Source: Pseudobdellovibrionaceae bacterium (GTDB taxonomy: Bacteria; Bdellovibrionota; FAC87; UBA2466). Taken from it: a stretch of 33,610 nucleotides of DNA. Under the pieces are notes generated by a model. The model was not told the origin of the DNA. It made no database searches and saw nothing but the letters and a program-made list of their open reading frames with translations. Within the stretch, counting starts at the first letter, position 1; each line of letters begins with the position of its first letter. Both the position numbers and the translations under genes were made by a program. Of the stretch, positions 3,604 to 27,005 are shown one piece after another. Where the stretch lies: NCBI GenBank assembly GCA_023250715.1, contig JAHFAF010000016.1, forward strand, positions 1 through 33,610, given 5' to 3'.

Positions 3604-4217
3604 TGTTCATCCCGCTTAAACAATATGAAGTAGCAGGGGATGCCCGGTGGCGCGTCGATCAAGCTAATCGTGATCTTCGACTTCAGCTTAGGCACCAGAG
3701 TGCGTTCTAAAAAATACTTCCTCAACCAGAAGTCGGACTCTGTGTTTGCGACCCTACCTTGATGCTGGTAAATGATTAGCTCTTCCTTATTCGACAGACC
3801 ATCAAGAAGGGAAAGCAACTCCAAGAGAGGCACATGGTCTTCAGTACAACCCCAATTGGGTTCAATCCCGGTATTGGGGTCTAAAAAGATTTGCAGATCC
3901 ATTCTTGATTTTTTACCGCGGTGGGTTTCAAGGATGTCCCTAAGTTCATCGAAGTACTGCGTTCGAACCAAAAATTCGTAAGGGCGCCGATGCACGATAC
4001 TTTCCCGTGTAACATCACTGACTATGAATCTTTCGAAAGCATCAAAAAAATACTCTCTCGTTTCTGTCGCCAGTTTGGTCACGCCAGATGGGGAGGAGTT
4101 ATCTTCGCAAAAATCCGAAAACATTCCACTGTATAGGAGTGTCCGCTTGTTTACGGTTGTGCGAAGTTGATCCCACTTCCATTGATCTGCTCTGTCTCCA
4201 AGGAATTTAACTCTCAT
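3585..4217 (-). CDS. Uncharacterised protein with GDxxDxxKWD N-terminus and FLDPNTGIEP / IIYQH motifs
   Basis: FLGDRADQWKWDQL, LQIFLDPNTGIEP, EELIIYQHQGR resemble a widespread uncharacterised family (GDxxDfxKyxLLR...FLDPDxGLE...YQHxxR), from memory. Lies 4 nt downstream of the DUF429 gene. Confidence 0.6.
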   Translation of the reverse strand: MRVKFLGDRADQWKWDQLRTTVNKRTLLYSGMFSDFCEDNSSPSGVTKLATETREYFFDAFERFIVSDVTRESIVHRRPYEFLVRTQYFDELRDILETHRGKKSRMDLQIFLDPNTGIEPNWGCTEDHVPLLELLSLLDGLSNKEELIIYQHQGRVANTESDFWLRKYFLERTLVPKLKSKITISLIDAPPGIPCYFILFKRDEQWNRER

Positions 4218-4221
4218 AAAA

Positions 4222-5109
4222 CTATCGGCACAATCCCTTTGACCGTACGTCTGTCGACTTTCGCGGTGCCCAGATCCAACCTTCCTTTATGAATAGTTCT
4301 TTCTGCCTACTGTTGCGCGGTATTGCAGCGATACAGTTCCCAAAGTAGTAATCTCGCGCTGTAAGCGCGCAAATCCAAGCATCCCATTCATCTACCACTC
4401 TAAAAGCAATGGATTCTGGTTTTGCGAACAGGTTTCCAAATTTCCTTTTCCACTCTGAATAATGCGGCCGACCGAACCGAAACGCTTTGCTGCCAAGGTG
4501 TGAGGTCACGCTTGCTTTGGGATAGACCTCAATAATGCTTCTCATTTTCCTTTTAGAGAGAGACGGGGTCTTAAACGGTGAGGCGACGCTGAAGTTCCAA
4601 CGGGCAATTAGGTGATGGATCAGTTCAGCGCCAACCATCGCTGTAACTCCCAAGCGATCCGTACTTACAGAGAGCGGGCCTTGGATATAAAGGTCCTTGA
4701 TTGTCTTGAACACCGTCTTATTGATGAGAGTATCAGTTTCCCGGAAACGAAACTTCTCGCGACCTTCCCTGGTGCCCCATCCATAACTCTTACTCGAGAG
4801 AGTTGAGTGTTTGCCGATTGCGTTTACGAACGAGCGCGGCCACCCAAACGGGACATCAATTCCTACCACAACGGATACTTCTGGATTTTGTAATATACAC
4901 TTAACCTGCTTGCTGTACTTTGTGGATAGATCTTCGAACGCCTGCTCCCAACTATCGCCGTGTAAGTTGAATAACATCGGTGACACTACCATCTTGAGTT
5001 TTCCGCGACTGTTTTGGCTGAGAACGCACACTCTTGTTTTGCTGGGGGAGGCAGCGAGATCAATTCCACAGAAAAATTGGATTTTGCTTTTTTTCGGCTT
5101 TGGGTTCAT
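4222..5109 (-). CDS. DUF429 family protein (predicted RNase H-fold nuclease)
   Basis: FFCGIDLAASPSKTRVCVL, VVVGIDVPFGWPRSF, LSVSTDRLGVTAMVGAELI, IIEVYPKAS, DAWICALTARDYY, EGWIWAPR. Shares all blocks with the 25489-26307 product. Confidence 0.8.
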   Translation of the reverse strand: MNPKPKKSKIQFFCGIDLAASPSKTRVCVLSQNSRGKLKMVVSPMLFNLHGDSWEQAFEDLSTKYSKQVKCILQNPEVSVVVGIDVPFGWPRSFVNAIGKHSTLSSKSYGWGTREGREKFRFRETDTLINKTVFKTIKDLYIQGPLSVSTDRLGVTAMVGAELIHHLIARWNFSVASPFKTPSLSKRKMRSIIEVYPKASVTSHLGSKAFRFGRPHYSEWKRKFGNLFAKPESIAFRVVDEWDAWICALTARDYYFGNCIAAIPRNSRQKELFIKEGWIWAPRKSTDVRSKGLCR

Positions 5110-5630: not shown

Positions 5631-5711
5631 AAAAAACAAAAAATGTGACATATATAAGGCATAACCGGTAAACAAGGTTTACCTTTTTAGACGTCACATT
5701 TTTTGTTTTTT
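5631..5711. repeat. Perfect 19-bp inverted repeat with 43-nt spacer containing a nested 7-bp hairpin
   Basis: AAAAAACAAAAAATGTGAC (5631-5649) and GTCACATTTTTTGTTTTTT (5693-5711); inner GGTAAAC-AAG-GTTTACC (5667-5683) followed by TTTTT. A third GTCACATTTT occurs at 5578-5587. Confidence 0.8.
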
Positions 5712-8609: not shown

Positions 8610-9485
8610 CTACGCGACTGACTCGGCTCGTCTAGAGATGAGCTCTTCGGACCCTGAGCCGTAAGGCAAAGAAATTGCTATTAGTTCTTCAATCTTTCCT
8701 CGTCTGTCTCCCTTAGAGTTGATGCAGCGAGGGGCGTGGACTGTCTTGAGCCTCCAACCAGTAAAGAGTTTTCGCACAACCGGCGCAGACGAATTACTCA
8801 CGAAGATCTGAGCCCCTCTCTTTCTGGCTTGATCGCAGGCGTCTCGGAGCCGATTCTGATCGGACCATGTAAAACCGCCGGGGGTGTAAGAGCTAAAGTA
8901 AGCAGTGTCGGAAAGAGGTACATATGGGGGGTCACAATAGATTAGGTCCCCCTTCCGAGCACTCGCGATAACTTCTGCAAAATCCGTGTTCATTATTTTT
9001 GCACGCGAGAGTCTTTTCGAAACGCTTAACATGTTTTCTAGATCATACAATTCGGGACACTTAACTCTTTTCCCAAAAGACACATTAAAGAGTCCTTTTG
9101 AGTTTGTTCGATAAAGTCCATTAAAGCAGGTCTTGTTCAAAAAGATGAAGCGAGTGGCCCGTTCGATTGCCGAAATTGGATTACTTTTCCGAACTTGGAA
9201 GTAAAACGTTTCCGAATATCTTTTCTTATAGGAGTCTAACTGCTTCATTAATTGTTCTGGATTGTCTCGAATGACTTTATAAGTGAGCATTAAGTCCGAG
9301 TTAGAGTCATTGATGATTGCTTTGGTCCCGGGAGCGATAGCAAGGTAGACGCTGGCCCCGCCAAGAAATGGCTCAATGTATCTCTCAAAGCGACCTGGAA
9401 ACAGGCTAATTAGCTCTTGCAGAAGGCTGGATTTTCCACCAGCCCATTTAAGTACTGGCCGCGCTCTATGTAGGTGATTGAACAT
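8610..9485 (-). CDS. dam: DNA adenine methylase, D12/Dam family
   Basis: RPVLKWAGGKSSLLQEL, YIEPFLGGASVYLAI, LIYCDPPYVPLS, FTWSDQNRL. Confidence 0.92.
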   Translation of the reverse strand: MFNHLHRARPVLKWAGGKSSLLQELISLFPGRFERYIEPFLGGASVYLAIAPGTKAIINDSNSDLMLTYKVIRDNPEQLMKQLDSYKKRYSETFYFQVRKSNPISAIERATRFIFLNKTCFNGLYRTNSKGLFNVSFGKRVKCPELYDLENMLSVSKRLSRAKIMNTDFAEVIASARKGDLIYCDPPYVPLSDTAYFSSYTPGGFTWSDQNRLRDACDQARKRGAQIFVSNSSAPVVRKLFTGWRLKTVHAPRCINSKGDRRGKIEELIAISLPYGSGSEELISRRAESVA

Positions 9486-9520
9486 ATGTATGGGACGGCA
9501 AAAGAGGACCCAACTATATT

Positions 9521-10198
9521 TTACATGAGCCCCAAAGAATATTTCAGAAAGTTCTTAGTCGCATAGAAGGCCATGGGCTTGATTGCCTTTCCGGTCACAG
9601 GGCAGACGATGGTGCGCTTGCCATCCCCTTTCGGACGGACTTGGATGTAGCCATCGGATGTTCCTCTGCTTGAATAATCTCCAATCCGACCGGCTTTTGC
9701 TTCCCCTCGTATCATTAACCAATATTCTCTGATGTGCTTGATGAGCGCAGGATCTGAAACATCCACGGGGGTAATGCTGTGAACTTTGCAAATTTTTTTC
9801 GACTCATGTACACACGCCACAATGATGAGGCGAGACAACTTCTGCCACAGAAAGGAGGACTCGAAGGTTTCCTTCATTAACGTGGCCGGATTAATCGACG
9901 TAATACACATCGTTTCTTTGGGAGAATGGAGTCCGCGACGCAGTACGAGCGAAGTTGATTTGAGTTCGAAATCGATCCCGTCAGGTTTCTGTAAAGAGCC
10001 GCCAACAACATTTCCTACTTTTTCGACTGTAATTCCCACCCAGCCTTTGTTGAGCTTCCCGTTCCGGGTCACCGTCACATTGTGTAGCTTCGCCAAATCG
10101 AAAAGGTTTCGCTTTGCGAGTGCGACACGAAGACGTCTCACAACTTCGAATCGTGTCTGATCGACCTCTTCCAAATTTAGTGCTGGAGTCTTTTTCAT
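9521..10198 (-). CDS. MutH/Sau3AI-like type II restriction endonuclease
   Basis: NKGWVGITVEKVGNVVGG...DGIDFELKSTSL resembles MutH/Sau3AI active-site spacing (ExK). Start set at MKKTPALN. 35 bp downstream of dam-like gene end on the same strand arrangement. Confidence 0.7.
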   Translation of the reverse strand: MKKTPALNLEEVDQTRFEVVRRLRVALAKRNLFDLAKLHNVTVTRNGKLNKGWVGITVEKVGNVVGGSLQKPDGIDFELKSTSLVLRRGLHSPKETMCITSINPATLMKETFESSFLWQKLSRLIIVACVHESKKICKVHSITPVDVSDPALIKHIREYWLMIRGEAKAGRIGDYSSRGTSDGYIQVRPKGDGKRTIVCPVTGKAIKPMAFYATKNFLKYSLGLM

Positions 10199-10344
10199 CG
10201 CTTTGTTACGGCCCCCCTCACTTATCGACACGATACATCCAAAAGTTATGCCCCAATGTTCAAACGGCACGAAACTTAAGCTGTGGTAAAATAATTTGGA
10301 TGGTTTTTGGTAGTTGTTCTAACTATCTATCGTACTCAGGCCAA

Positions 10345-11286
10345 ATGAACGCCAATGAAACACGCTCCGCGTCGCGACGCGCATTCAATAGTTTTGAAGC
10401 TGAGAGTGCTCCCACTACGTTGTTAAGCCCGTTACGTTATCCCGGTTCGAAACGCCGTCTTGCCCCTTTTATTGAAAAAATAATTCGAGCTAATGGATTG
10501 AATCCTGACCTTTACGTTGAACCCTTCGCTGGTGGAGCGAGCGTGGCTTTGCATTTATTGGCGGCCGATGCCGTGGAGAAAATCGGGCTTACGGATAGAG
10601 ACCCTTTGGTAGCTTCGTTTTGGCAGACTGTTTTCTTCAATCCCGGGGGACTAATCCGGAGAATTAAAAGGTTCGAAGTTACACATGCTCGTTGGTACGC
10701 TCTCAAAAAATCCGAGCCTCGTGACCTCGTAGATCGAGCTTTCAAATGCCTCATCCTGAATCGAACCAGCTTCTCGGGCATCTTAGCAAAAAACGCCGGG
10801 CCTCTTGGGGGAAAGAACCCCGGTTCATTGGAATTGCTCAACTCCCGCCTATATCGTAGCGGTGTAATCGAACGAATTGAAAACGCTCACTCCATGAGGA
10901 AGAGAGTCGCGTTCGTTTGGAATGCTTCTTGGGATCGGGCTCTAAACATAATCAAAAAAAGGAGCCTTGGTCGGATTTTTCCGAAGAACGTTCTTTACTA
11001 CTTCGACCCACCATTCTTTGAGAAGGCGGATCGCCTATACAATTTTTTCTTCGCTTCGGATGAGCACGAAACGCTTCGAGACGCTCTATCTGTTCTAAAA
11101 GCGCCATGGCTCTTGAGCTATGACTCGCCACATAAAGCACGAAAGCTATATTCTTCTGCAGGCGTGGTTAGTCGTAGTTTCCAGATGACTTATAGCGCTT
11201 CGGCCACACCCGCTTTTCGAAAGTCGGAGATCCTCATTTCGAATTTAGGTATCCTGCCACGGCCAGGCGCCTTTGGAACGAGTTAG
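10345..11286 (+). CDS. Second D12-class N6-adenine DNA methyltransferase
   Basis: PLRYPGSKRRLAPFIEKII, YVEPFAGGASVALHLL, NRTSFSGI, VLYYFDPPFFEKA. Start set at MNANETRS within the listed ORF. Confidence 0.85.
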   Translation: MNANETRSASRRAFNSFEAESAPTTLLSPLRYPGSKRRLAPFIEKIIRANGLNPDLYVEPFAGGASVALHLLAADAVEKIGLTDRDPLVASFWQTVFFNPGGLIRRIKRFEVTHARWYALKKSEPRDLVDRAFKCLILNRTSFSGILAKNAGPLGGKNPGSLELLNSRLYRSGVIERIENAHSMRKRVAFVWNASWDRALNIIKKRSLGRIFPKNVLYYFDPPFFEKADRLYNFFFASDEHETLRDALSVLKAPWLLSYDSPHKARKLYSSAGVVSRSFQMTYSASATPAFRKSEILISNLGILPRPGAFGTS

Positions 11287-11408
11287 TCGTTTCCCATGCC
11301 TACCTGTGAGACTGCATCAAACGTCTCGAAATAGCTTATTTTTCACAAGAAAAATGCCGATAGCCATTAGAAGTTCCAACGGACTTGGGGCCTTTAACTC
11401 AAAGCACT

Positions 11409-13472
11409 ATGAAAACTACAGAAGCCAACCAACTTAAAGAACTCGTTCAAAAAGAAAATTTCGTTGGTTGGACATACTCAGTCGACTACGACCGGGCTCT
11501 GATAATGACCAATGATCTTTGGAAGGTCCAAGCACTAGGTGTTCCCCACAACTGCTTCTTGGTCGCGGCTTCGTTTAATCCAGAGGAGATTGAATCGGTC
11601 CCTGAAGCCGATCGAGAGGTAATCCTTCTTCGTGTAATCGCGGCGACTCATCTTCCGCAGGAGCAGGACCTCATCCAAACGAAGATTGATCATTTCCAGC
11701 GACAAGAAGGCATCTACCAGTCATCCGGCGCCCACGATTACGATGACATTACCAAGAACCAGCTACAGTTCAGCGGTCTAGAGTGTAGAGTTCTCGGAAC
11801 TTTCTACGTGCGGGACGGAGAACTGAACTTGGGCAGCGACTTGGAATCATTTGGCACAGCTACACGATTGAATGTCTATCGGCCCAGAGGAAAATCTCTC
11901 GCCATTATTGCTAACTACGTCGATCCAATTCGACGGCAAAAAAGCGCTGAAGAAATGCAGCAGCTTGGTCTTAAGAAGCCTATTTCACCCTTCAAGATAG
12001 GAACAGTACGGTATACCTCCACCGATCGTCTTCACCGCCTGAACGACGAAGAGAAAGTTCCTGTGGCAATTCAACCTGCCGATTTTCTAGCCCGACGAAC
12101 GGCCATTTTTGGAATGACCCGCACTGGGAAGTCCAACATGGTCAAGCAAATGGTCTCTGTCGTAAAGGACGTAGCTGACAAAGGCGAAATCAGAATAGGC
12201 CAACTTATCTATGATATTAACGGCGAGTACGCGAACGCGAATCAACAGGATAAGGGAGCCTTAGCTGATCTCTTTCCACGCGATACCGAGCGCTATCGAA
12301 TGCTAGACACCAAGGGTTTTCATGATCTTCGAAATAACTTTTACGAACAGCTAATCGAAGGGTTTTCACTAATCCGATCTGAACTTCAAGGGGCCCCGGG
12401 TGCTAATTCGGGTTACCTCAGTTTTTTTCTCAACATGTCGTTAGACGAGCCAGGTGCATCTGACTACGGTGAAAAAATCCGTTGGGAAGTGAGGGTCGCG
12501 GCTTACAAAGCTCTTCTCTTCAAAGCAGGTTTCGAGCCCCCTCCAAGTCACAAAGTAAGATTTACTGCAAACAAGGATGTCCGGAAGGCAGTGGACGAGG
12601 CGGCTAAAACATCACTCCCGGATCCGAGCACTGGACTCACCCTTGGTCAGGCAGTCGATTGGTTCTTGGCCGCAAGGGCGGCAAATAATGAGCAACCACT
12701 TACTAGTAGCGGAAAAGGTAGATGGGTTGATGATACTTTGGGAGTTGTCTTAGACATGCTCCAACAGAAGAACCAAAACAATACCTTCATTTCCGGGTTC
12801 GTGGTTCTGACCGATATTGCAAAGTATCATTCGGCAAAAAGAACAAGCGACGTTGCAACTGAAATCTATAAGTTTCTCGAGCAGGGAAGGATCGTTATCC
12901 TTGATCTTTCAGTTGGAAACGCGCTCATACGCGAAAGCATTAGTAAGCAAATCGCGGCAAAAGTATTCGATGAATCGATGAAGAGGTTCGTGGAGGGGAA
13001 ATTACCCCCGAACATCGCTATCTATATTGAGGAGGCCCACAATCTCATAGGGAAGGGAATGGAACTCAGTGACACTTGGCCCCGCCTCGCTAAGGAAGGG
13101 GCGAAGTATCGAATTGCCCTTGTGTATGCGACCCAAGAGGTATCATCCGTTCACCCTAACATTCTGGCTAACACAGAAAACTGGTTCATTACGCATCTCA
13201 ATAATTCCAGAGAAATAAGGGAGCTTTCGCAATTTTATGACTTCGAAGATTTTAGTCGCTCTTTGTTGCGGGCCCAGGATGTTGGGTTTGCCAGAGTCAA
13301 AACTTTATCCAGTCCTTATGTGATTCCAGTGCAAATTGACAAATTCGAGCCAAAGCTGAAACGGTCCTTGGCAACACCTTCTCCTACGACTGGTGGTCCA
13401 ACAGAACAGAAGGGTCTGATGGGCGGGAAACTTCTTCTTGGTAACAAGAAGGCGGCGAGTGGAGGCAAGTAA
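11409..13472 (+). CDS. herA: HerA-like ATPase (DUF87/FtsK-HerA)
   Basis: Walker A FGMTRTGKSN, LIYDINGEYAN, Walker B IAIYIEEAHN, C-terminal YATQEVSSVHPNILANTENWFITHLNN. Start set at MKTTEAN. Confidence 0.9.
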   Translation: MKTTEANQLKELVQKENFVGWTYSVDYDRALIMTNDLWKVQALGVPHNCFLVAASFNPEEIESVPEADREVILLRVIAATHLPQEQDLIQTKIDHFQRQEGIYQSSGAHDYDDITKNQLQFSGLECRVLGTFYVRDGELNLGSDLESFGTATRLNVYRPRGKSLAIIANYVDPIRRQKSAEEMQQLGLKKPISPFKIGTVRYTSTDRLHRLNDEEKVPVAIQPADFLARRTAIFGMTRTGKSNMVKQMVSVVKDVADKGEIRIGQLIYDINGEYANANQQDKGALADLFPRDTERYRMLDTKGFHDLRNNFYEQLIEGFSLIRSELQGAPGANSGYLSFFLNMSLDEPGASDYGEKIRWEVRVAAYKALLFKAGFEPPPSHKVRFTANKDVRKAVDEAAKTSLPDPSTGLTLGQAVDWFLAARAANNEQPLTSSGKGRWVDDTLGVVLDMLQQKNQNNTFISGFVVLTDIAKYHSAKRTSDVATEIYKFLEQGRIVILDLSVGNALIRESISKQIAAKVFDESMKRFVEGKLPPNIAIYIEEAHNLIGKGMELSDTWPRLAKEGAKYRIALVYATQEVSSVHPNILANTENWFITHLNNSREIRELSQFYDFEDFSRSLLRAQDVGFARVKTLSSPYVIPVQIDKFEPKLKRSLATPSPTTGGPTEQKGLMGGKLLLGNKKAASGGK

Positions 13473-13501
13473 GTCTCAAACGGCCCCCGAGAGCTCAATT
13501 T

Positions 13502-14908
13502 ATGCCCTATAGGAAACAATTTGCGAGCAAGGTTGCTCACGGGGACATCATAAGAAACCCGGAAGTCGCAGACTTTCTTTCGGAATGCGAGTATCTCCGT
13601 GTTCCTTCTGATGAAGAAGGCAAACGGATGGTTCAAGATAAGTTTCTTGAGCCTGTGTCCGACGGCTCTACCGACCTTCCTCTTCGCGTTGTTAGCTTTG
13701 ATGGGAGCTATCACGAGTCAAGTATCGACGATAAACTGCCCAGCACAAAAGTAGGCTACGTCAAAGTAGGTTGCATTTTGATCGAGATGGAGAAGTTTAA
13801 TAATCTTCGCCGAAAAGAAATAAATTTAGTCGATCCATTTAGAGTTGCAGCACTTCAGCGCGACAATGACTCTCTGACGTTCTCCCTTCCAAGTGCAAAT
13901 ATACGACTCAAAGGAAAGGCTTCGGTTCGCGACAGCTTCAGGGCTGCCTTGGATGCTCATTTACATAGTGCTAAGACGCGTTTCTTGCCCGAGGATCCTA
14001 CGACTAGTCTGCGAACCACGCTCTTTCACCTGGCTTCTAGGCGGCAAGGAGTCTTGGGCACAAACGATGTTACTCGACTGAAACTCCACAAGTGCCCTTC
14101 CTGCGAAGCGGGGCCCTTGGAAATAACAGATACCGATGCTCAGCAAAACTGCCCTCAATGTAAAAAGGAAATTTACCCATCGGACTGTCTCCGGATTTGG
14201 GAGGAAGTTTCGGATTTCCAATCAAATATTCAAGCCATGACTCGGTTGATGATGATGGTCGAGCACATGCTCCCAATTCATTACATTAGATACTTGCTTG
14301 AAAACGATCTTGAGTGTTTGAGTAAGGTGTCTTTTTTCATCGATGGACCTCTCGCCATCTTTGGCAATTGTGCATGGCTTCATGGTCCAATTATGAGCTA
14401 CATCGACAGGGCCAACTATGAACTTACTAACATGGGACTCCCCCCGTTGTTAATAATTGGCCTGCAAAAGACAGGACAGGTCGTTGATCATGTAACATTG
14501 ATTAACCGCTTCGTAGAGAATAACCGCCTATTCTGCATAGACGATGACTACCGCTACAACTTCATTCTGACTGGCCGAGATCCCGCTGGAAATGGTTTCG
14601 GCAGTGAAACCTACTATGGGCAAGACTATATTTACAAAACGCCAAGCGGAAGATTCTTCGTCTTCGCGCTTCCTTATCCGTTTCCTTCAAAAAAGATTGA
14701 GCGCGTTGAGTTTCATCAGGCTAAGTTGGATTCTGAGAGGTATCCGAGACTCGAGCAGGCTTTACGCCTCATCCAGCATTTTGAATGCGATCTGTATGAT
14801 AACTCCGTAATACCTGTCGCACTGGCACACAAACACACTGCAATTAGCTTAGTTCCTGGGGGGCAGGTTCTCGACCTATTGACGAGACGAGGTCTTGCGT
14901 CGAAATGA
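13502..14908 (+). CDS. nurA: NurA-domain nuclease with internal zinc ribbon
   Basis: VVSFDGSYHES, CPSC..(n)..CPQC ribbon, FFIDGPLAIFGNCAWLHGPI, LLIIGLQKTG. Directly follows the HerA gene. Confidence 0.82.
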   Translation: MPYRKQFASKVAHGDIIRNPEVADFLSECEYLRVPSDEEGKRMVQDKFLEPVSDGSTDLPLRVVSFDGSYHESSIDDKLPSTKVGYVKVGCILIEMEKFNNLRRKEINLVDPFRVAALQRDNDSLTFSLPSANIRLKGKASVRDSFRAALDAHLHSAKTRFLPEDPTTSLRTTLFHLASRRQGVLGTNDVTRLKLHKCPSCEAGPLEITDTDAQQNCPQCKKEIYPSDCLRIWEEVSDFQSNIQAMTRLMMMVEHMLPIHYIRYLLENDLECLSKVSFFIDGPLAIFGNCAWLHGPIMSYIDRANYELTNMGLPPLLIIGLQKTGQVVDHVTLINRFVENNRLFCIDDDYRYNFILTGRDPAGNGFGSETYYGQDYIYKTPSGRFFVFALPYPFPSKKIERVEFHQAKLDSERYPRLEQALRLIQHFECDLYDNSVIPVALAHKHTAISLVPGGQVLDLLTRRGLASK

Positions 14909-14915
14909 AAGGTAA

Positions 14916-15908
14916 CTATGACTCAACTCTGCTGCTTTTTCGAAGTTCACTTCTTAGCCAATCTCGCTCCTGAGAAGTGATTGGGGTTAGCGATGAATTG
15001 CTATTGGATGCCTCAACGATTTTTTCTGCCAGCGGTGATGGTAGCAGTGTGCGCACATTTTCGATCGGTGGATCTCGTTCTATTTCGAATTTCATGAAAT
15101 GAACGTATTTTCGATTGTTAAGTGATGTCCCACCTTTCACGCCTCCCTCAAATATCTCGGATTTTTCTCCCTCCAAAGTATTGCAATAAGGATGCGTCAG
15201 GACGCCTTCAACACATCGATTAACAGTAATATTCCTAGATCCCAACCTCATTTTCTGTTGACTACCTGGAGCCTCAAAAAATAGGAAAATAATTTTATCC
15301 CCTCTGTGAGCGTTAAGAAGGTGCCGCACTGAAAATGAGCTATTCGAAAACGCCCAAAAACGATCTTTAGATCGTAGTGATTCCATCTTCTTCCAGTTTG
15401 AAAAAGCCGTCCCACGCAGCGGAACTAACCAGACTTGCGATTCCGAAATATCGCGCGGGGCCAACTCCTTCTCAAGGAGGGCGTCTTTGCAAAGGGAGTC
15501 TATTCTATCAGATAGCCAATTGCGAAAGTGAACCGGCTCAATAACTACCTTTGGAATAGTCTTTTCAGGCGAGTCATCATTGAGGCAGAAGAGGTAGCCC
15601 GAGTTTTTTTTAATGTAATCTACTTGGGACTTTTTCGTGAATTCACTTGATTTCCATTTGATTTCGACTGGGATTCCTTTCTTTTTATCGCGAAAGAAAA
15701 GAGTAAAATCCGGTCGGTACCCTTTTGTGTCCTTAGCCAATTCAGGAAGGATCAAGTTCAGATGTCTGAGATGACAGATCACACGCCTGTCGTTGGGAAG
15801 CATCATGTTTCTCACAGCCAATGAACCAAAATAGAGTGACTCCATGAAATAACGATGGAGGATCTTCTCCGTGAAGGCGTTCTTATTAATTTCTCGAAAC
15901 GAGCTCAT
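14916..15908 (-). CDS. PD-(D/E)XK-type restriction endonuclease-like protein
   Basis: YRPDFTLFFRDKKKGIPVEIKWKSSEF (D-xn-ExK). Overlaps the XRE gene upstream, ATG/stop coupling at 15905-15908. Confidence 0.65.
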   Translation of the reverse strand: MSSFREINKNAFTEKILHRYFMESLYFGSLAVRNMMLPNDRRVICHLRHLNLILPELAKDTKGYRPDFTLFFRDKKKGIPVEIKWKSSEFTKKSQVDYIKKNSGYLFCLNDDSPEKTIPKVVIEPVHFRNWLSDRIDSLCKDALLEKELAPRDISESQVWLVPLRGTAFSNWKKMESLRSKDRFWAFSNSSFSVRHLLNAHRGDKIIFLFFEAPGSQQKMRLGSRNITVNRCVEGVLTHPYCNTLEGEKSEIFEGGVKGGTSLNNRKYVHFMKFEIERDPPIENVRTLLPSPLAEKIVEASNSNSSLTPITSQERDWLRSELRKSSRVES

Positions 15909-16255
15909 GATAACCCCATCTTCTTAGCTAGAATGACGACAGTGTTAAGATCGCGGTAGAGTTTATCGGGCAAGTCCTCTACTTGCTTGTATCTGTCTCT
16001 TATTTTCTTTAAATCGAAGACTAGGACATCATCATTCGTAAAAAATATCGCGGGACTAGTTTCCAAACCCTTCGCCAACGCCACCAACGTCTGCACCGAG
16101 GGCGAGTTCTTCCCCGCCTCAAAATGTGCCAATGACCCCTGCGTGATTCCCGCCTTCTGGGCCAACTCAGTCTGAGTCATCTTTCGCAGCTCTCGTAGGT
16201 ACTTAATCCGTTCATTCAAGGGATAGTCCGACTGTTTCTTTGGCTTTACCTTCAT
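15905..16255 (-). CDS. XRE-family HTH regulator
   Basis: LRELRKMTQTELAQKAGITQGSLAHFEAGKNSPSVQTLVALAKGL. Paralogous to the 20748-21098 product. Confidence 0.88.
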   Translation of the reverse strand: MKVKPKKQSDYPLNERIKYLRELRKMTQTELAQKAGITQGSLAHFEAGKNSPSVQTLVALAKGLETSPAIFFTNDDVLVFDLKKIRDRYKQVEDLPDKLYRDLNTVVILAKKMGLS

Positions 16256-17159: not shown

Positions 17160-18686
17160 ATGAGTATCAAAGCGAAAACCAAAGCCAGTGGACTGTCCGG
17201 CACCATCGATTACCAACTGACCAAGACGACTTATACATTCGGAGTTCAATGTCTGAAACGTCTGTACATGGAAAAGCATGAACCGGCGCTGGCAACGCCC
17301 GATGCGCCAAGTACAGAACTCCGGAAAATGCGGGGTGTCGAAATCGGCAACCTCGCCCATTCCCTTTATCCTAAGGGAATACTCATCGAACGAGACTCTG
17401 AGAAACCTGCCCATGAAGCGACTCGCGAAGCGATGGAAAACGGAGCTCTTACGATTTTTGAAGCGACCTTTATTTATGACGGAGTTCTTGTCAGAGTGGA
17501 CGTTCTCAATCGCAAGAATAAGAAAGCGCCCTGGCAACTGATTGAAGTGAAGTCGTCCACCCACCTGAAAAAGGAACACCTTCCCGATCTTGCCATTCAG
17601 ACTTGGGTTTTGAAAAACTGCAAAGTTCCTCTAGAAGGAACCTATCTTATGCATGTAGATAACTCGAAACCATTCCCTGCCACTCAAGACCTTATGAAAC
17701 TAACTGAGGACCTCTCGGAGGAAATCGACGAGCATATCGAAGAAGTCCCCAAGAGAATCAAGGAGATGAAAAAAGTCCTCTCTTCGAAAAAGCCTCCGGA
17801 AGCAAAAATCGGAACACAGTGCGAAGCCCCCTGGAAATGTCCTTTCAAAGAACAATGTTGGAAGAACGTGCCTGAGCCCTCAATTTTGGATCTGTATAGG
17901 TATCCAGTGGACGAACGCTACGATTTGTATCACTCCGGGATCGTAAAGATCACTGACAAGCGCATTGAACCGACAAATGAAATCGCCAAAAGAATGATCG
18001 AGGTCGAGAAAAAGAAAAAGCCTCATTTCAACAAAGAGCTTGTTCGAAACAAACTTACCAATGAGTGGCAGCTGCCTTACTACTATCTGGATTTTGAAAC
18101 AATCAGTACGCCTATTCCACGCTTTAATAAGGTGAAGCCATACAATAAAGTTCCGATTCAGTTCAGCCTCCATATCCAGGAAAAGCAGAACGGAAAAGCG
18201 ACTCACAAAGAATATCTTCACTCGGATGGAAGCGATCCTAGACCTGCTATCGCCAAAGCTCTCTGCGAAGCCATCGGCAACAAAGGAACGATTCTAGCCT
18301 TCAACGGGAGCTTCGAAGCCGCTATTCTTAAGTCACTCGCGGCTGCAGTGCCGAAATACGCGAGCCAGCTCAAATTGATGGCAGAACGGATAGAGGATCC
18401 TCAGATTCTCTTTCGGGAGGCTATTTACGACAGTAAATTTCTAGGAAGCTTCAGTCTGAAGATTGTTGCACCAGCGATTCTGGGAGCGAAGTTTGACTAT
18501 AATTTATTGGAGATCAGCGAGGGCGGTGCCGTGGAACTTTTCTTCGACGAAATGAATCAAGAAAGCACGCCAGGAAAGAAAAAGGAAGAACTCCGCAAAC
18601 AGCTCCTCGCTTACTGCAAAGTCGACACAGAGGCGCTCGTTGAACTCACGAACTGGCTGTGGAGCAAGCTGAGCAAAGGAGAATGA
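17160..18686 (+). CDS. Cas4-like nuclease fused to DUF2779 (DEDD exonuclease-like) domain
   Basis: N-terminal FGVQCLKRLYMEKHEP, WQLIEVKSST (ExK), Cys cluster CEAPWKCPFKEQC; C-terminal YYLDFETISTPIPRF, FNGSFEAAIL, LLAYCKVDTEALVEL. Confidence 0.85.
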   Translation: MSIKAKTKASGLSGTIDYQLTKTTYTFGVQCLKRLYMEKHEPALATPDAPSTELRKMRGVEIGNLAHSLYPKGILIERDSEKPAHEATREAMENGALTIFEATFIYDGVLVRVDVLNRKNKKAPWQLIEVKSSTHLKKEHLPDLAIQTWVLKNCKVPLEGTYLMHVDNSKPFPATQDLMKLTEDLSEEIDEHIEEVPKRIKEMKKVLSSKKPPEAKIGTQCEAPWKCPFKEQCWKNVPEPSILDLYRYPVDERYDLYHSGIVKITDKRIEPTNEIAKRMIEVEKKKKPHFNKELVRNKLTNEWQLPYYYLDFETISTPIPRFNKVKPYNKVPIQFSLHIQEKQNGKATHKEYLHSDGSDPRPAIAKALCEAIGNKGTILAFNGSFEAAILKSLAAAVPKYASQLKLMAERIEDPQILFREAIYDSKFLGSFSLKIVAPAILGAKFDYNLLEISEGGAVELFFDEMNQESTPGKKKEELRKQLLAYCKVDTEALVELTNWLWSKLSKGE

Positions 18687-20747: not shown

Positions 20748-21098
20748 TTACTTCAGGTATTTAATATCCCGCGCAAACTGCACCACCTTCCAAAGCGCGG
20801 CGTGCATGGCATCGGTGAGGTCTTCACTTTTTTTATACTTTCTACGAAGTCTCGGGATGTCAAAAACGTGCACCTCTTTTGAGGCAAAGATGGTGGCGAT
20901 ATCGACATCGAGGGCAATGGCGATCTTGCGCAAGGTATCTACCGAAGGGTCTTTGAGGCCCTTTTCGATATGGGCGATGGTGGATTGGGAGACCTTTGCG
21001 TGCTTAGAAAACTCCATCTGAGTCCATTGGCGAGATTCTCGAAGGTACTTCAGTCTCTCACTCAGCTTGTACTCAGGGAGTTCTTTGTGCTTCTTCAT
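20748..21098 (-). CDS. XRE-family HTH regulator, candidate master regulator of the CAAGTAC operators
   Basis: LRESRQWTQMEFSKHAKVSQSTIAHIEKGLKDPSVDTLRKIAIAL. Start set at MKKHKELPEYKL. Paralogue of 15905-16255. Confidence 0.85.
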   Translation of the reverse strand: MKKHKELPEYKLSERLKYLRESRQWTQMEFSKHAKVSQSTIAHIEKGLKDPSVDTLRKIAIALDVDIATIFASKEVHVFDIPRLRRKYKKSEDLTDAMHAALWKVVQFARDIKYLK

Positions 21099-21156
21099 GA
21101 TGTTCCTATCGGAAACTCTCACTGGAATCCTTAGAGAATGCAACTATATACTATTT

Positions 21157-21255: not shown

Positions 21256-22956
21256 TTGAATGAAGAGAGCGGTATCGTGAGCATGCAAGAATTGGAGCGG
21301 TTGAAACGGTTTGGGCTGAAAGAGTTTCGTGGCTTGGAATCGATGTGGGAATTCATCCAGGGCTTAGACGAGCTCGATGTTCTCCGAAATCCCCCGAAAG
21401 GGGGCGATGCTTCCGAACTCTCGAAAATTCTCAGGCAAACGGTTTCCATAATCGCCTACCACTGTAGAGTCACCGCTACGATGAAGCTCAACTCGACTTT
21501 GGTTCAGGCTATTCTCGCAGATACGCGCCCATATGTTAGAGCGGCTCTCCTACTGAACGAGAAATGCTCCGCGACAGAAGTAATTCTGCTGCTTGGCGAT
21601 ATTTCAGCTGAGGTCGCGGAGTTTGTTGCTTCTCACCCTAAAGTGAAACTTCTGGAAAAAAGAAGATGTGGCGAAGTTCTTCTTGGTAAAAATCAAAGAA
21701 GAGTCGCGGATGCCCTCATCCAAAACGCCGACTGTCCTGTTCATATCTTGAAAATGATGGCTCAGGACCCCAATGAAAGAAGGCTTCAAATTCTGGCAAG
21801 CAATCCAACGCTTCCGAAGGAGGTCTTCGACCTCCTGTCGCTTCATACCGATACTACAGTTCTTGCCCGGCTAGCCGAAAATAAAAACCTACCTCCAGAG
21901 TTTTGCAATCGCCTGGCACTTACTAGTGATTTTCAAGTTAGATCAGTTCTCGCAGATCGTTTGGACATTGAGCCCAGCCTCCTTGGGAAACTCAGCATGG
22001 ATTCTCATGTGCGTGTTCGCGCGGTTGCCTCAAACCGGCTCGAGGGAGTCTTGCGGATGGGCGGGACGCGGTTAACCGAATGGTGCCATGCGAATTTGGG
22101 TGTTTCTAGTCCCCGCTTCACGAATTTAGTTCAGCGCTCAATACCTACACTTTCGCCAATGGGCTGGATGGCGATTCTGGCAGATTTTCTAAGACGCGTT
22201 TACGGCACCAACACGAGTGAGTATTTCGATATGCTGGAACGGTTGTCCTGCGAAGCGGTCGCCAGTAATATTTCTGGATCATCCGAAGTATTTCAGGGGT
22301 GCCCCTTCCTCGAAGCAAGCTTTAGCGGGTTAACCAAAACCAGCATCGAGAGAATTCTTAGGAGCGATTTTTCAAAAGAGAGATTGTCGCTTTGGTCGTC
22401 TTTAAAAAAAGATATGGGGAATTCCCTCCTTTTCGTTAGGCCCGAGCTTAAGGAAGGGCTCAAGAAACAGGAATTTCGAAGTATGGATGACCTTCTTAGA
22501 ATAGCGGGACAGATTATTGAAAACAAATACAACGAGCTAAAGATTTTCAAGACTCACTCCCTTCCGTTAGCAAAGACACTCTTCAATTTGCACAAGATTA
22601 AGCTCGATGGCGAACTTGCCCACCTAACAATTCATACCCCAAAAACGCTCCAGGAACTTGTGGAAGTCGGGGGAGTCTTGAAAAACTGCTTAAGAAACAA
22701 GGACACTGCTCTGAGATACGGACATTCAACCCGCCCCGTTTTCATTCTCAGGTCGAGTTCAGACAAACGGCCCGTCTATGTCGTGCAAGTAGATAGCGAT
22801 GGGGCCATTCAAGATATGAAAGGGAAGTGTAATCGGCCGGCCCCAAAACGGCTTCAAAAAGGCCTGCAGTCAGCCATTTTGAAGGCAACTCCAAGGCAAA
22901 ACATTTTGAGTGGTGCGCGCTCGCTTGCTCGACAACTGGGTCAACTGCCCGGATGA
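21256..22956 (+). CDS. LRV/HEAT-like repeat protein with C-terminal PcfJ-like domain
   Basis: Repeated units such as LKMMAQDPNERRLQILASNPTLPKEVFDLLSLHTDTTVLARLAENKNLPPEF; C-terminus LQELVEVGGVLKNCLRN...FILRSSSDKRPVYVVQVDSDGAIQDMKGKCNRPAPK. Start could be 21277 or 21283. Confidence 0.7.
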   Translation: MNEESGIVSMQELERLKRFGLKEFRGLESMWEFIQGLDELDVLRNPPKGGDASELSKILRQTVSIIAYHCRVTATMKLNSTLVQAILADTRPYVRAALLLNEKCSATEVILLLGDISAEVAEFVASHPKVKLLEKRRCGEVLLGKNQRRVADALIQNADCPVHILKMMAQDPNERRLQILASNPTLPKEVFDLLSLHTDTTVLARLAENKNLPPEFCNRLALTSDFQVRSVLADRLDIEPSLLGKLSMDSHVRVRAVASNRLEGVLRMGGTRLTEWCHANLGVSSPRFTNLVQRSIPTLSPMGWMAILADFLRRVYGTNTSEYFDMLERLSCEAVASNISGSSEVFQGCPFLEASFSGLTKTSIERILRSDFSKERLSLWSSLKKDMGNSLLFVRPELKEGLKKQEFRSMDDLLRIAGQIIENKYNELKIFKTHSLPLAKTLFNLHKIKLDGELAHLTIHTPKTLQELVEVGGVLKNCLRNKDTALRYGHSTRPVFILRSSSDKRPVYVVQVDSDGAIQDMKGKCNRPAPKRLQKGLQSAILKATPRQNILSGARSLARQLGQLPG

Positions 22957-22972
22957 GAGAATCGGAGAAAGG

Positions 22973-23371
22973 GTGATCGTTGAGATCCAGCCGATGAGAG
23001 GCGAGCCGAAAGAGGCGCAAGCAGCAGGCAGACTTTATGGTCGAGAGTTTCGCTTCTTTATTCACTCGCTAGAGGGACAGGTCATAGAGTTATTTTACGA
23101 TCGAAGTAGGATGTGTACTCCGCTGATTGAAATGATGAAGGGGGGGTGGCTAGTGGACCCTCTTTGCGACGGTCAGATTATTCGTAGTGGAAAGGTTTTT
23201 GAAGTAATCGATAACAGCGTTTTCGAGCATCTTCAGGAGATTGTTTTGAAGGGCCCAACGGTACCAAGAGCGCACTATCGCTGTGTTGCAAATCTTATCG
23301 CACGAACGACCCATATTCCATGCAGTCTGGCGCCATCTTTGTTGCAACGGATTCATCTTGGGGAAATTTAA
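22973..23371 (+). CDS. Hypothetical protein
   Basis: GTG start preceded by GGAGAAAGG, 16 nt after the LRV-PcfJ stop. Confidence 0.55.
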   Translation: MIVEIQPMRGEPKEAQAAGRLYGREFRFFIHSLEGQVIELFYDRSRMCTPLIEMMKGGWLVDPLCDGQIIRSGKVFEVIDNSVFEHLQEIVLKGPTVPRAHYRCVANLIARTTHIPCSLAPSLLQRIHLGEI

Positions 23372-23397
23372 GATGCTAGCGGTTTGGAAGGAATACT

Positions 23398-23745
23398 ATG
23401 ACATTGGATGAACGCAGCCGCGAACTCTTCAGGCTGGTCGAGATTGGATTACGCGGTATCGAATGTTTGGAATTTAAACACGACCGTGACACTGACGCCG
23501 CCGTAGCGAAATTCCGAGTTCGACTCATCGGCTCAAACGACATCACCTACACTTTAGCGGCTCGTATTACCATGCTTTCTGAACTTCGCAATCAGTTAAC
23601 TCAATTGCGTCGATGCGCTGACAGAGCGGGTGAATTGCTAGGCAACAAGGATTTTGGCAGTGGTCTATTTGAGATTCTACAGGTGACTGCAGAGATCTTG
23701 TCGAACCTTGGATGCAGCGATGCGAAGTCGGAGAAGCCCATATGA
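23398..23745 (+). CDS. Hypothetical protein
   Basis: 115-aa ORF in the operon. Stop overlaps the next ATG (ATGA at 23742). Confidence 0.6.
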   Translation: MTLDERSRELFRLVEIGLRGIECLEFKHDRDTDAAVAKFRVRLIGSNDITYTLAARITMLSELRNQLTQLRRCADRAGELLGNKDFGSGLFEILQVTAEILSNLGCSDAKSEKPI

Positions 23746-24194
23746 CCAACCTCGAGAAACAAGTAGGCGGCGCGACGACTCTATCGGAATTAGTGAGTTC
23801 GCTCAAACCCGGTGCTTTAGTGTGGGTATTCTCCTCTTCCGTAGATAACCTGGGTTTCAAAGAAGTTAACCAAGCGTGTGAACGCGGAGGCCTCGATCCC
23901 TTCTACATTTTCTGGCCTCGAACGCGAGTGAATGGCGATGAGCCTCCAGACACCTTTCCACTTGGCCCAAGCGGAATGAAGCGCATAGCAAGAACGACCA
24001 ATTCCGTCGTAATCAATTTTGCTCCCTTGGAACCCCGGATAGATGAAAATCTCAGTCTTAACGATGTCCGAAGTCAGTGGAGAGGAACTCTTCATGAGTG
24101 TGATGCGGAAATAATAATCATTCGAGAGAAGGGATCTGCCCACATAGTGAGAAACCGGCTCGGCAGCTGGGGCCCCCTAGCGATGGAATCTTGA
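23742..24194 (+). CDS. Protein X, first copy; possible degenerate RecA/DnaB-like fold
   Basis: Paralogue of 25038-25487: LKPGALVWVFSSSVD...ACERGGLDPFYIFWPR...HECDAEIIIIREKGSAHIVRN..GSWGPLAMES. Confidence 0.65.
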   Translation: MTNLEKQVGGATTLSELVSSLKPGALVWVFSSSVDNLGFKEVNQACERGGLDPFYIFWPRTRVNGDEPPDTFPLGPSGMKRIARTTNSVVINFAPLEPRIDENLSLNDVRSQWRGTLHECDAEIIIIREKGSAHIVRNRLGSWGPLAMES

Positions 24195-24195
24195 G

Positions 24196-24327
24196 ATGGA
24201 ATCTAACGATACATTTTTCTGCGGCGTTGATCTCCCCGCTTCTCCAAAGCATAGCTACGTCACCGTTGGCATTGATCTCGGGTTATCTTCCCAGAGAAGC
24301 ACCATCGGGTCCGGAGGCACAGTATGA
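24196..24327 (+). pseudogene. DUF429 remnant (43 codons)
   Basis: MESNDTFFCGVDLPASPKHSYVTVGIDLG... matches the N-terminal FFCGIDLSASPKHTG and GIDVPFGW motifs of intact DUF429, then terminates. Not in the ORF track. Stop overlaps the next ATG (ATGA). Confidence 0.65.
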
Positions 24328-25031
24328 ATACATACCCCTTTACCGACGATCACCCCCTCAACAACTTTTCCGTCGCCCATCCGATATCCAAGGCTGTCCT
24401 TGCGAAACTCCATCGCCTCGGCATGATGAAAAAATCCCAGTTAAAAGACGGGTATTTCTACTACGGCTTCTGCCACAACGCCCGAATTGCTATGTGGTTG
24501 GCCAACGAGAACACATTTCACTATCTTGGTTTTAAAGGCGGTGTATTCGAAGAACGAATAAAGCATCCTGAAGACGACGACTGCAATTCATCGTTGCCAG
24601 TGGATCTATTCAAGCCCCTGTATGAATTGCCACCCCAGCTAAATCCTAACCTCCCTGTCGACGACTGGATGAAACCAGATAAAAAAGAAGGGTTAAAGCT
24701 ATTACTGAATGATTGGGTGCATTCTGGCTACTCCAACCAGAATCAGATTGTGACGGGAGGCTTTTCTAGTCAGAACTCACAGAAGCTCTATAAGACTCGT
24801 TGGCCGCAGGAACCTGGAGTTGCAGGTCTTTATGATCGGGGCTCTCAGTGTGGCGGATGTAGCTTTTATGCCCCATTCGATGCGGACTATGGTCTTTGCT
24901 GTTTTTCAAAATCACGCCATCACTTGGAAACGGTTTTTGAACATTTCACTTGCGAGGCCTTTCAAAAGGAAAGTTGGGGCGCTCATTCATTCCAGGAGAC
25001 TTCTCCCCCACCAAAGCGAGGCAAGAAGTGA
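24324..25031 (+). CDS. Uncharacterised protein with C-terminal four-Cys motif
   Basis: QCGGCSFYAPFDADYGLCCFSKSRHHLETVFEHFTCEAF resembles CGxC...GxC...FEHxxCxxF metal-binding motifs (DUF3027-like). Confidence 0.65.
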   Translation: MNTYPFTDDHPLNNFSVAHPISKAVLAKLHRLGMMKKSQLKDGYFYYGFCHNARIAMWLANENTFHYLGFKGGVFEERIKHPEDDDCNSSLPVDLFKPLYELPPQLNPNLPVDDWMKPDKKEGLKLLLNDWVHSGYSNQNQIVTGGFSSQNSQKLYKTRWPQEPGVAGLYDRGSQCGGCSFYAPFDADYGLCCFSKSRHHLETVFEHFTCEAFQKESWGAHSFQETSPPPKRGKK

Positions 25032-25037
25032 ACATGT

Positions 25038-25487
25038 ATGAATAGAAAGAAACAACCAGGTAGTCCGACTGAGCTGTCAGAATTGATCGATATGCTGAAG
25101 CCGGGTTGTTTGATGTGGGTGTTTTCGTCAGTCGTAGATCAGGCAGCCTTTAATCAGATACAACGGGCGTGTGAACGAGGGGGAATGGATCCCTTCTATA
25201 TTTTTTGGCCACGCGCCCAAGTGCAATGCAATGGACCACTAGCCAGCTTTCCTCTGGGCCAGAAAGAGATTAAGCGGATTGCAAAACTATCGAACACCGT
25301 GGTCATCTCCATTGCCCCAATATCAGGTCGGAAGGAGGGACGCCTCACCCTCAGTGACATCCGACAGCAATGGGGTGGAATGATGCATGAGTGTGACGCA
25401 GAAATTATCATTCTGATAGAGAAAGGCTCCAACAGCATAGTCAGGAACTTATATGGAACCTGGGGACCTTTGGTGATGGATTCCTAA
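25038..25487 (+). CDS. Protein X', second copy of the X family
   Basis: LKPGCLMWVFSSVVD...ACERGGMDPFYIFWPR...HECDAEIIILIEKGSNSIVRNLYGTWGPLVMDS. Confidence 0.65.
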   Translation: MNRKKQPGSPTELSELIDMLKPGCLMWVFSSVVDQAAFNQIQRACERGGMDPFYIFWPRAQVQCNGPLASFPLGQKEIKRIAKLSNTVVISIAPISGRKEGRLTLSDIRQQWGGMMHECDAEIIILIEKGSNSIVRNLYGTWGPLVMDS

Positions 25488-25488
25488 C

Positions 25489-26307
25489 ATGAAGAAAACC
25501 AAATCAAAGAAGGGTGTCTTTTTTTGTGGTATCGACCTGTCGGCGTCTCCTAAGCACACCGGTTTGTGCGTCCTGACAATGACGGAGGGGAAGCTGAAAG
25601 CGATCGCAAAACCCATTGAAGGGAATTTCCGTGCAAAGGAATGGACAGATGAGTCTATTAACTGTTTGGTCGAGTTTTTCAAAAGCAAAGGAATATTCGA
25701 ACACCCATGCAATGAAATTGTTCTCGCGATTGATGTTCCGTTTGGTTGGCCCACTTCATTCGCAGAGGCCCTGGAGAACTTCAGAATAGGTGGATCTACT
25801 GGTGATAAGTGGGGCACTAGACTCGGTCGCCAGAAGCTGCGCTTTCGACAAACTGATCTATTTGTATGGGGCAAGCTCAGGAAAAGCACGTTGTCGGTCA
25901 GTACTGATCGATTGGGAATTACTGCAATGGCGGGAGCCGCTATCATATCCGAACTAGCGCGCAGACTTAGATTCTCAGTAGACCTATCAGGGGCGAACTT
26001 GTCCGCGCGACGACGAATTATTGAGGTTTATCCCATCGGAAGCGCCAGATCGTTCTTGGATTCAAGACGAAGCTCACAGCCCCCCAAGAATAGTTTTGCC
26101 AGGGAGCGAATGCTTTTACTTCGAAATTTTCACGGAGGTGCTCACGCTCGCGACGCGCTCTTATGTGCACTCACAGCAAAGAGTTACTACGATCGTCAGT
26201 GCTATTTCCCGTCTGAACTAGGACGGGAGCATCAAGGACAGATTAAGAAGGAAGGTTGGATTTGGTTACCTAGAACCGGGGGAATGGCTCAAACATTTCT
26301 TAGCTAG
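25489..26307 (+). CDS. DUF429 family protein (predicted RNase H-fold nuclease), intact
   Basis: FFCGIDLSASPKHTGLCVL, LAIDVPFGWPTSF, LSVSTDRLGITAMAGAAII, IIEVYPIGS, ARDALLCALTAKSYY, EGWIWLPR. Confidence 0.8.
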   Translation: MKKTKSKKGVFFCGIDLSASPKHTGLCVLTMTEGKLKAIAKPIEGNFRAKEWTDESINCLVEFFKSKGIFEHPCNEIVLAIDVPFGWPTSFAEALENFRIGGSTGDKWGTRLGRQKLRFRQTDLFVWGKLRKSTLSVSTDRLGITAMAGAAIISELARRLRFSVDLSGANLSARRRIIEVYPIGSARSFLDSRRSSQPPKNSFARERMLLLRNFHGGAHARDALLCALTAKSYYDRQCYFPSELGREHQGQIKKEGWIWLPRTGGMAQTFLS

Positions 26308-26321
26308 AGGATGCATCTAAC

Positions 26322-27005
26322 ATGAAAAAGAACGGAGGAAGCAAGAGCGTGGTTTCGCTTCATCATATAGGGGAGCCGTTCGTAGCGCGCCTATTGGAGT
26401 CCGCGCTGAAGAAACAGGCTGATATTCCCTGTCTGATCAGGCCCCTTGTGAGACAGGGTACCTGGAAAGAGGCCAACTTATTTCAAACACTCAAAGCTGG
26501 TTCGAAAAAATTGAAAGTTGTCTATGATACTCGAGTCCACCATGAGTCTGAAAAGATGAATCACCTGCACCGCCTTGATTGCGGAATTCTTTCTCGCACA
26601 GGGCGTTCGTGTTTTGCCATCGAGGTTAAACTTGGTTTACCTTGGCAAACTGGTTTCTATCGGAAATTTATCTCTAAGCGGCCGATACTGAAAGAGCTGA
26701 GCACCGATCTTTGGGGGGGATCTATGTGCGCTTTATTGGAAAGATTCCCTAAATCTGCCAATTTTGATTTTTCAAAATTGTTTATCTGGACCGACCAGAA
26801 AAAGGTCCAACTCGCTGAGCCTTGGGGTGTGGTGGTAAGAAAAAATCAAGTTGAATGCCTTACAGTAGCACCCTTCAGAAATTTGACCCACATCATCGCT
26901 CTGGAAGATCTCGCTGACAGGGTCAAAGAGCGTTTCGAAGAGATTGCCGAGTCTTTGATTTGGCCCCGGGGAAAGGCAAAGCAGACTCTATTTTCAACCA
27001 AATAG
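26322..27005 (+). CDS. PD-(D/E)XK-like putative nuclease
   Basis: HRLDCGILSRTGRSCFAIEVKLGLPW (D-xn-ExK). Confidence 0.6.
   Translation: MKKNGGSKSVVSLHHIGEPFVARLLESALKKQADIPCLIRPLVRQGTWKEANLFQTLKAGSKKLKVVYDTRVHHESEKMNHLHRLDCGILSRTGRSCFAIEVKLGLPWQTGFYRKFISKRPILKELSTDLWGGSMCALLERFPKSANFDFSKLFIWTDQKKVQLAEPWGVVVRKNQVECLTVAPFRNLTHIIALEDLADRVKERFEEIAESLIWPRGKAKQTLFSTK

What the first reader, a model, noticed from the sequence alone, without database searches (positions are those of the whole stretch)
21256..27005. Candidate undescribed multi-gene system: LRV-PcfJ / X / DUF429 / Cys4 / X' / DUF429 / PD-(D/E)XK operon
Nine same-strand reading frames are packed with gaps of about 1-26 nt and two ATGA overlaps (23742, 24324). 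The order is LRV repeats-PcfJ-like, two unknowns, X, DUF429 remnant, Cys4 protein, X', intact DUF429, PD-(D/E)XK. Packing implies co-expression. Two predicted nucleases plus a repeat sensor-like protein inside a restriction-rich island suggest defence or element control. I do not recognise this gene set as a named system. Function is inference.
Basis: partly seen in the sequence, partly recalled or inferred. Interest (0 to 1): 0.85.

Follow-up and report, generated by a model that had tools for sequence, protein, structure and literature searches.

The report
Paired nuclease genes in defence island
A tightly packed run of genes in a bacterial defence island carries, at its end, a pair of predicted DNA/RNA-cutting enzymes that also occurs side by side in another genome of the same phylum and is probably an uncharacterised anti-virus module, while the other genes of the run are mostly local additions of unknown function.

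Summary
The same-strand frames lie at 21256-27005 with gaps of 1-26 nt and two ATGA overlaps; X is duplicated (58% identity), DUF429 is present once intact and once as a 43-aa remnant. Codon statistics and X1/X2 divergence indicate real genes.

The claim of one nine-gene system is not supported. X has no relative in 369 genomes of the phylum, nor (at pattern or tblastn sensitivity) in GTDB contigs, IMG/VR, phages or plasmids.

The part that recurs is DUF429 + the terminal PD-(D/E)XK protein. That nuclease family, unknown to Pfam, NCBIfam, PADLOC and PHROGs, occurs in 2 of 369 genomes. These are the same two that carry a close DUF429 (E<=5e-27), and the genes are adjacent in both. More distant DUF429 genes elsewhere also sit next to unrelated PD-(D/E)XK-like genes (DUF4268, DUF6998, NOV_C types) and inside Qat, Gabija-like, DRT and type I restriction loci. 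PADLOC lists DUF429 only as an unverified candidate (PDC-S44).

Best explanation: a two-nuclease anti-invader module. X may be a P-loop-less RecA/DnaB-like adaptor (weak evidence). Function is inference; both fold predictions (X, PD-(D/E)XK) failed.

The parts
20748..21143 (-). HTH_3 (Xre-type) regulator, divergent from the operon; possible regulator
   Evidence: Pfam HTH_3 5.6e-14; paralogous to the HTH at 15905-16255. No clear operator palindrome found. Role as regulator is inference.
21256..22956 (+). Repeat (LRV-like) + PcfJ-like protein; first gene of the run (TTG 21256 or ATG 21283)
   Evidence: PcfJ PF14284 1.7e-6 above cut-off; LRV below cut-off. Only partial repeat-region matches on plasmids.
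22973..23371 (+). ORF2, unknown, 132 aa
   Evidence: No family; codon usage supports coding.
23398..23745 (+). ORF3, unknown, 115 aa
   Evidence: No family; codon usage supports coding.
23742..24194 (+). X1, 150 aa, orphan family; possibly a RecA/DnaB-like domain without Walker A
   Evidence: 58% to X2; no relatives found; hhalign X pair vs DnaB score 33.8, 65 columns, prob 39%.
24196..24327 (+). DUF429 remnant (43 aa)
   Evidence: Residues FFCGVDLPASPKHS match DUF429 (E 1.4e-5); codon score near neutral.
24324..25031 (+). Cys4 protein; N-terminal part related to small phage proteins (phrog_18490)
   Evidence: phrog_18490 2.2e-10, residues 34-87; 35-39% identity to proteins of Pseudomonas, Bordetella and Erwinia phages. 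No plasmid match.
25038..25487 (+). X2, 149 aa, paralogue of X1
25489..26307 (+). DUF429, predicted RNase H-fold nuclease with intact acidic residues D16, D82, E179, D222
   Evidence: PF04250 1.3e-14; PDC-S44 2.4e-14; residues conserved in 24-26 of 26 diverse DUF429 sequences.
26322..27005 (+). PD-(D/E)XK-type nuclease, unlisted family; core partner of DUF429
   Evidence: Conserved E18, D86, E101xK103; homologue directly next to DUF429 in G328 (L038); family in 2/369 phylum genomes.

Best explanation
The run is a layered defence-island operon whose functional core is a two-gene nuclease module: DUF429 (RNase H/RuvC-like fold) and a PD-(D/E)XK endonuclease. Shown: both genes, their intact motifs, their adjacency here and in one other genome of the phylum, and the defence-island setting of several DUF429 relatives. 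Inferred: the two act together on invading nucleic acid, the PD-(D/E)XK enzyme cutting duplex DNA and the DUF429 enzyme cutting a branched or RNA-containing intermediate (as RuvC- or RNase H-like enzymes do). Also inferred: X, which follows the pattern of a RecA/DnaB-like domain that has lost its P-loop, is a local non-catalytic adaptor that steers the nucleases, perhaps to replication forks; and LRV-PcfJ, ORF2, ORF3 and Cys4 are accessory or separate cargo under the same promoter. The X-DUF429 pair was duplicated long ago; one DUF429 copy decayed and Cys4 now follows it, while both X copies stayed intact.
For: PD-(D/E)XK family and close DUF429 (E<=5e-27) occur in the same 2 of 369 phylum genomes and are adjacent in both; chance of the same two genomes by independent draw is 1/C(369,2), about 1.5e-5, ignoring shared ancestry or transfer. 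Gene order is swapped (DUF429-PD here, PD-DUF429 in G328) and identities are only 31-39%, so this is not recent copying. In other loci, DUF429 lies next to unrelated PD-(D/E)XK-like genes: L006 (30 nt, ENQ-type motif + DUF4268), L017 (135 nt, DUF6998), L007 (222 nt, PDF...EEK motif), plasmid L039 (overlapping, NOV_C/DUF3883). DUF429 relatives lie in Qat, Gabija-like+SEFIR, DRT8-like and type I restriction loci. Active-site residues kept in 26 diverse DUF429s. DUF429 is assigned to the RNase H-like superfamily in PMC3985635; PMC4429107 cites RNase HII activity of a mycobacterial DUF429 protein. X copies under purifying selection.
Against: Only one independent genome shows the exact pair. Defence islands are rich in PD-(D/E)XK genes, and I have no background rate for adjacency. 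The fold models of X and the PD-(D/E)XK protein failed (pLDDT 38 and 31). The PD-(D/E)XK call rests on motifs. Many DUF429 genes (e.g. most in the Myxococcota-centred set) are in ordinary chromosomal settings without a nuclease neighbour, so the family is not defence-only. The X-DnaB similarity is weak and single-template.
Confidence: 0.5

Rival explanations
1. Unrelated cargo: genes accumulated in a mobile island and packed by chance into one transcription unit; DUF429 and the PD-(D/E)XK gene each act alone (DUF429 as single-gene candidate PDC-S44).
For: X, Cys4, ORF2, ORF3 have no conserved neighbourhood found; PADLOC treats DUF429 as single-gene; a decayed DUF429 copy shows turnover; a second DUF429 in the window (4222-5109) pairs with a different gene (3585-4217).
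Against: The exact DUF429/PD pair recurs in G328 with divergent sequence; the X-DUF429 junction is the same in both copies.
Confidence: 0.27
2. One nine-gene defence system, as first proposed, with LRV-PcfJ as sensor and the nucleases as effectors.
For: Tight packing and two ATGA overlaps; no internal promoter-like site; divergent HTH gene.
Against: No other genome with the set; G328 has the pair with WYL instead; X absent from the other 368 phylum genomes.
Confidence: 0.12
3. Element-maintenance or repair/recombination function for the mobile island (nucleases processing the element's own replication or transfer), PcfJ being a conjugative-plasmid family.
For: PcfJ domain; recombinase gene and tRNA-Ser near the window's start; HerA-NurA pair nearby.
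Against: No conjugation genes recognised among the genes scanned; island content is restriction-like (MutH, D12 methylases, GmrSD).
Confidence: 0.08

Closest known systems
DUF429 (PF04250; COG2410/COG4328/COG4923), RNase H-like superfamily
   Same: Sequence family above the cut-off and all conserved acidic residues kept; superfamily assignment published in PMC3985635.
   Different: Sits in an operon with X and a PD-(D/E)XK gene; PMC3985635 describes DUF429 as mostly single-domain with conserved context in related taxa and unlikely to be mobile, whereas these copies are on an island.
PADLOC candidate PDC-S44
   Same: DUF429 here and the second DUF429 in the window match the model (2.4e-14, 4.5e-12).
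   Different: PDC-S44 is a one-gene candidate; [quoted passage not shown] A conserved nuclease partner is not part of it.
PD-(D/E)XK-like genes adjacent to DUF429 (DUF4268, DUF6998, NOV_C/DUF3883 types)
   Same: Same partnership pattern and same type of catalytic motif.
   Different: The window's nuclease matches none of these; no Pfam, NCBIfam, PADLOC or PHROGs family passed its cut-off. That these Pfam families belong to the PD-(D/E)XK superfamily is from motif reading and own knowledge.
DnaB C-terminal (RecA-fold) helicase domain
   Same: X aligns over 65 columns (32% identity) to the DnaB segment LKALAKE...SDLRESGAIEQDAD...NGPTG.
   Different: X lacks a Walker A motif and is only about 150 residues; Pfam DnaB_C does not match X.

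Membership tests
DUF429 / RNase H-like | Match to PF04250 above gathering score | tested here: met
   54.9 bits vs cut-off 23.
DUF429 / RNase H-like | Conserved acidic residues of the active site | tested here: met
   D16, D82, E179, D222 conserved in 24-26 of 26.
DUF429 / RNase H-like | RNase H fold by structure | not tested
PADLOC PDC-S44 | Match to PDC-S44 profiles | tested here: met
   2.4e-14 over residues 35-264.
PADLOC PDC-S44 | Anti-phage activity | not testable with these tools
   Needs an assay.
PD-(D/E)XK nuclease | D...ExK catalytic motif conserved between diverged members | tested here: met
   E18, D86, E101, K103 invariant in two sequences 31% identical.
PD-(D/E)XK nuclease | Restriction-endonuclease-like fold | tested here: inconclusive
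   AlphaFold2 model failed, pLDDT 31; no PDB sequence match.
DnaB/RecA-fold domain (X) | Profile similarity beyond unrelated proteins | tested here: inconclusive
   Score 33.8 (X2 alone 34.1); in 400 background ORFs the five best (37.7 to 27.4) were all P-loop NTPases by their sequence and the best other scored 26.5; but prob 39%, no PDB or Pfam match.
DnaB/RecA-fold domain (X) | Walker A (GxxxxGK[ST]) | tested here: not met
   Absent in X1 and X2 (sequences).
Nine-gene conserved system | Same gene set in other genomes | tested here: not met
   X in none of the other 368 phylum genomes; none found in GTDB contigs, IMG/VR, phages, plasmids.

The most novel reading that the evidence does not exclude
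DUF429 proteins are the RNase H-fold half of a widespread, unnamed defence arrangement in which they are paired with interchangeable PD-(D/E)XK nucleases; in this island the module has gained a dedicated P-loop-less DnaB-like protein (X) that targets it to replication machinery.
Probability: 0.15. Interest if true: 0.8.

Novelty: new variant of a known kind. Interest (0 to 1): 0.5.

Why it matters
DUF429 is a common family with a predicted nuclease fold and no settled biological role; the held literature (four papers naming it) offers no defence function that I could find, and PADLOC carries it only as an unverified one-gene candidate. A recurring PD-(D/E)XK partner would explain why single-gene tests could fail, and gives a concrete two-gene construct with defined catalytic residues to test. 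X is a protein family so far seen only at this locus.

Tried and rejected
Relatives of X by pattern in GTDB contigs and IMG/VR, by profile in 369 phylum genomes, by tblastn in phages and plasmids: none. Structure of X (pLDDT 38) and of the PD-(D/E)XK protein (pLDDT 31): unusable, so no fold search was run. PDB sequence search for X, PD-(D/E)XK and DUF429: no significant match. RadA/Sms as template for X: no signal above shuffles. An hmmsearch with a DnaB profile did not single out X, and X1 alone matches DnaB only over 20 residues; I therefore keep the RecA/DnaB idea as a lead. X1/X2 as a recent duplication: rejected, synonymous sites are saturated. An operator for the HTH gene: no good palindrome. 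A repeat of the tRNA-Ser end as attachment site: none of 15 nt or more in the window. DUF429 searches centred on the genomes of a Gammaproteobacteria MAG and a Myxococcales MAG: DUF429 relatives found, but no PD-(D/E)XK of this family and no X beside them.

Full report
Observation. The two ATGA overlaps are at 23742 and 24324. The annotated frame of each intact gene beats its five alternatives on codon usage; the 43-aa DUF429 remnant does not stand out clearly. X1 and X2 are 58% identical with pN 0.26 and saturated synonymous sites, so both have been kept as proteins for a long time even though the DUF429 behind X1 has decayed. In both copies X and DUF429 are separated by exactly stop-1nt-ATG.

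Setting. The window has a tRNA-Ser (1103-1192) and a serine-recombinase-type gene (1397-3235) near its start, and carries MutH-like and D12 methylase genes, HerA and NurA-like genes, a DUF2779/Cas4-like gene and a GmrSD restriction gene. The run begins less than 200 nt from a divergent HTH gene and is followed by GmrSD at 27305.

Gene identities. LRV-PcfJ: PcfJ is above its Pfam cut-off, LRV repeats below. DUF429: Pfam 1.3e-14 and PADLOC PDC-S44 2.4e-14. The last gene has no accepted family in four libraries but carries E18, D86 and E101-x-K103, invariant in its one relative. Cys4: its N-terminal part belongs to a small phage protein family, phrog_18490. ORF2, ORF3 and X have no significant match.

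What recurs. A profile of the PD-(D/E)XK protein matches 2 of 369 genomes of the phylum, the window's and G328. A profile of the island's two DUF429s matches five genomes, but only these two strongly (G328 5e-27; the other three about 5e-4). On G328 contig C38 (L038, 5.3 kb) the order is WYL-domain regulator, PD-(D/E)XK, DUF429, then an FtsK-like frame (the FtsK label is from reading the sequence). X was not found in G328 or in any of the other 367 genomes. The pair, not the nine genes, is therefore the conserved unit.

Wider DUF429 context. In loci fetched from GTDB contigs, DUF429 lies behind QatB-QatC-QatD (L005), between Gabija-like genes and a SEFIR gene (L008), in a type I restriction locus (L019), behind a DRT8-like reverse transcriptase (L007) and beside a type I restriction subunit C-terminus (L013). 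Several loci have a PD-(D/E)XK-like gene directly upstream: DUF4268 type in L006, DUF6998 in L017, an unnamed PDF...EEK protein in L007, NOV_C/DUF3883 on a Nocardioides plasmid. These loci were selected by DUF429 similarity only, but I have no background rate, and in the Myxococcales-centred set most DUF429 genes have ordinary neighbours.

X. hhalign of the X pair against 27 DnaB sequences gives score 33.8 over 65 columns (prob 39%), aligning LSLNDVRSQWRGTLHECDAEIII with the DnaB segment SDLRESGAIEQDAD and its flanks. Among 400 background ORFs only two score higher than X, and the five best all read as P-loop NTPases; the best other ORF scores 26.5. X1 alone matches DnaB at a second, colinear place just before the P-loop position. 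X has no Walker A. Against this, controls are mixed (a reversed X scored 26 against RadA), an hmmsearch with the DnaB profile did not separate X from background, and no PDB or Pfam match exists. I treat RecA/DnaB-like as a lead of perhaps 40%.

Mechanism. Most likely the DUF429 and PD-(D/E)XK proteins are two nucleases acting together on invading nucleic acid, with X as a non-catalytic adaptor specific to this locus. DUF429 belongs to the RNase H-like superfamily, in the clade of resolvases such as RuvC (PMC3985635), and a mycobacterial member is cited as having RNase HII activity (PMC4429107). The catalytic residues are present. Joint action, substrate and trigger are inference.

Novelty. PADLOC holds DUF429 as candidate PDC-S44; a paper that uses PADLOC discards PDC entries as non-defence, unverified or unpublished predictions (PMC12409356). 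I found no paper in the held library describing DUF429 in defence or paired with a nuclease; the Payne et al. 2024 preprint on embedded defence genes is cited by held papers but is not held, so it could not be checked. Hence a new variant of a known kind, not a categorically new system.

Noticed in passing
3585-5109 (-): A second intact DUF429 (4222-5109, 43% identical to the operon's) directly followed by an unannotated 210-aa gene (3585-4217); a weak relative of that gene (E 0.004) lies between two DUF429 genes in L017. Possibly another DUF429 partner.
   Followed up: partly
8610-11286: MutH-type nuclease gene flanked by two D12-class adenine methylase genes: probably a GATC-type restriction-modification set.
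   Followed up: no
11385-14908: HerA-like ATPase gene followed by a NurA-domain gene with a zinc-ribbon-like stretch (CPSCEAG...CPQCKK).
   Followed up: no
15905-16255 and 20748-21143: Two paralogous HTH_3 regulators, both on the minus strand, in separate parts of the island.
   Followed up: partly
17160-18686: Cas4-like + DUF2779 + RNase H-type protein; a DUF2779 homologue sits next to a DUF429 in L031.
   Followed up: partly
L039:6001-6754: Nocardioides plasmid pCHL carries a DUF429 without a listed gene (one in-frame stop) abutting a DUF3883 gene.
   Followed up: partly
24324-25031: Cys4 protein joins a small phage protein family (phrog_18490) to a C-terminal CxxC...CC...C region; a phage-related domain inside a defence-island operon.
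   Followed up: partly
5631-5711: 81-nt self-complementary stretch (76%) upstream of the tyrosine-recombinase-like gene at 5762.
   Followed up: no
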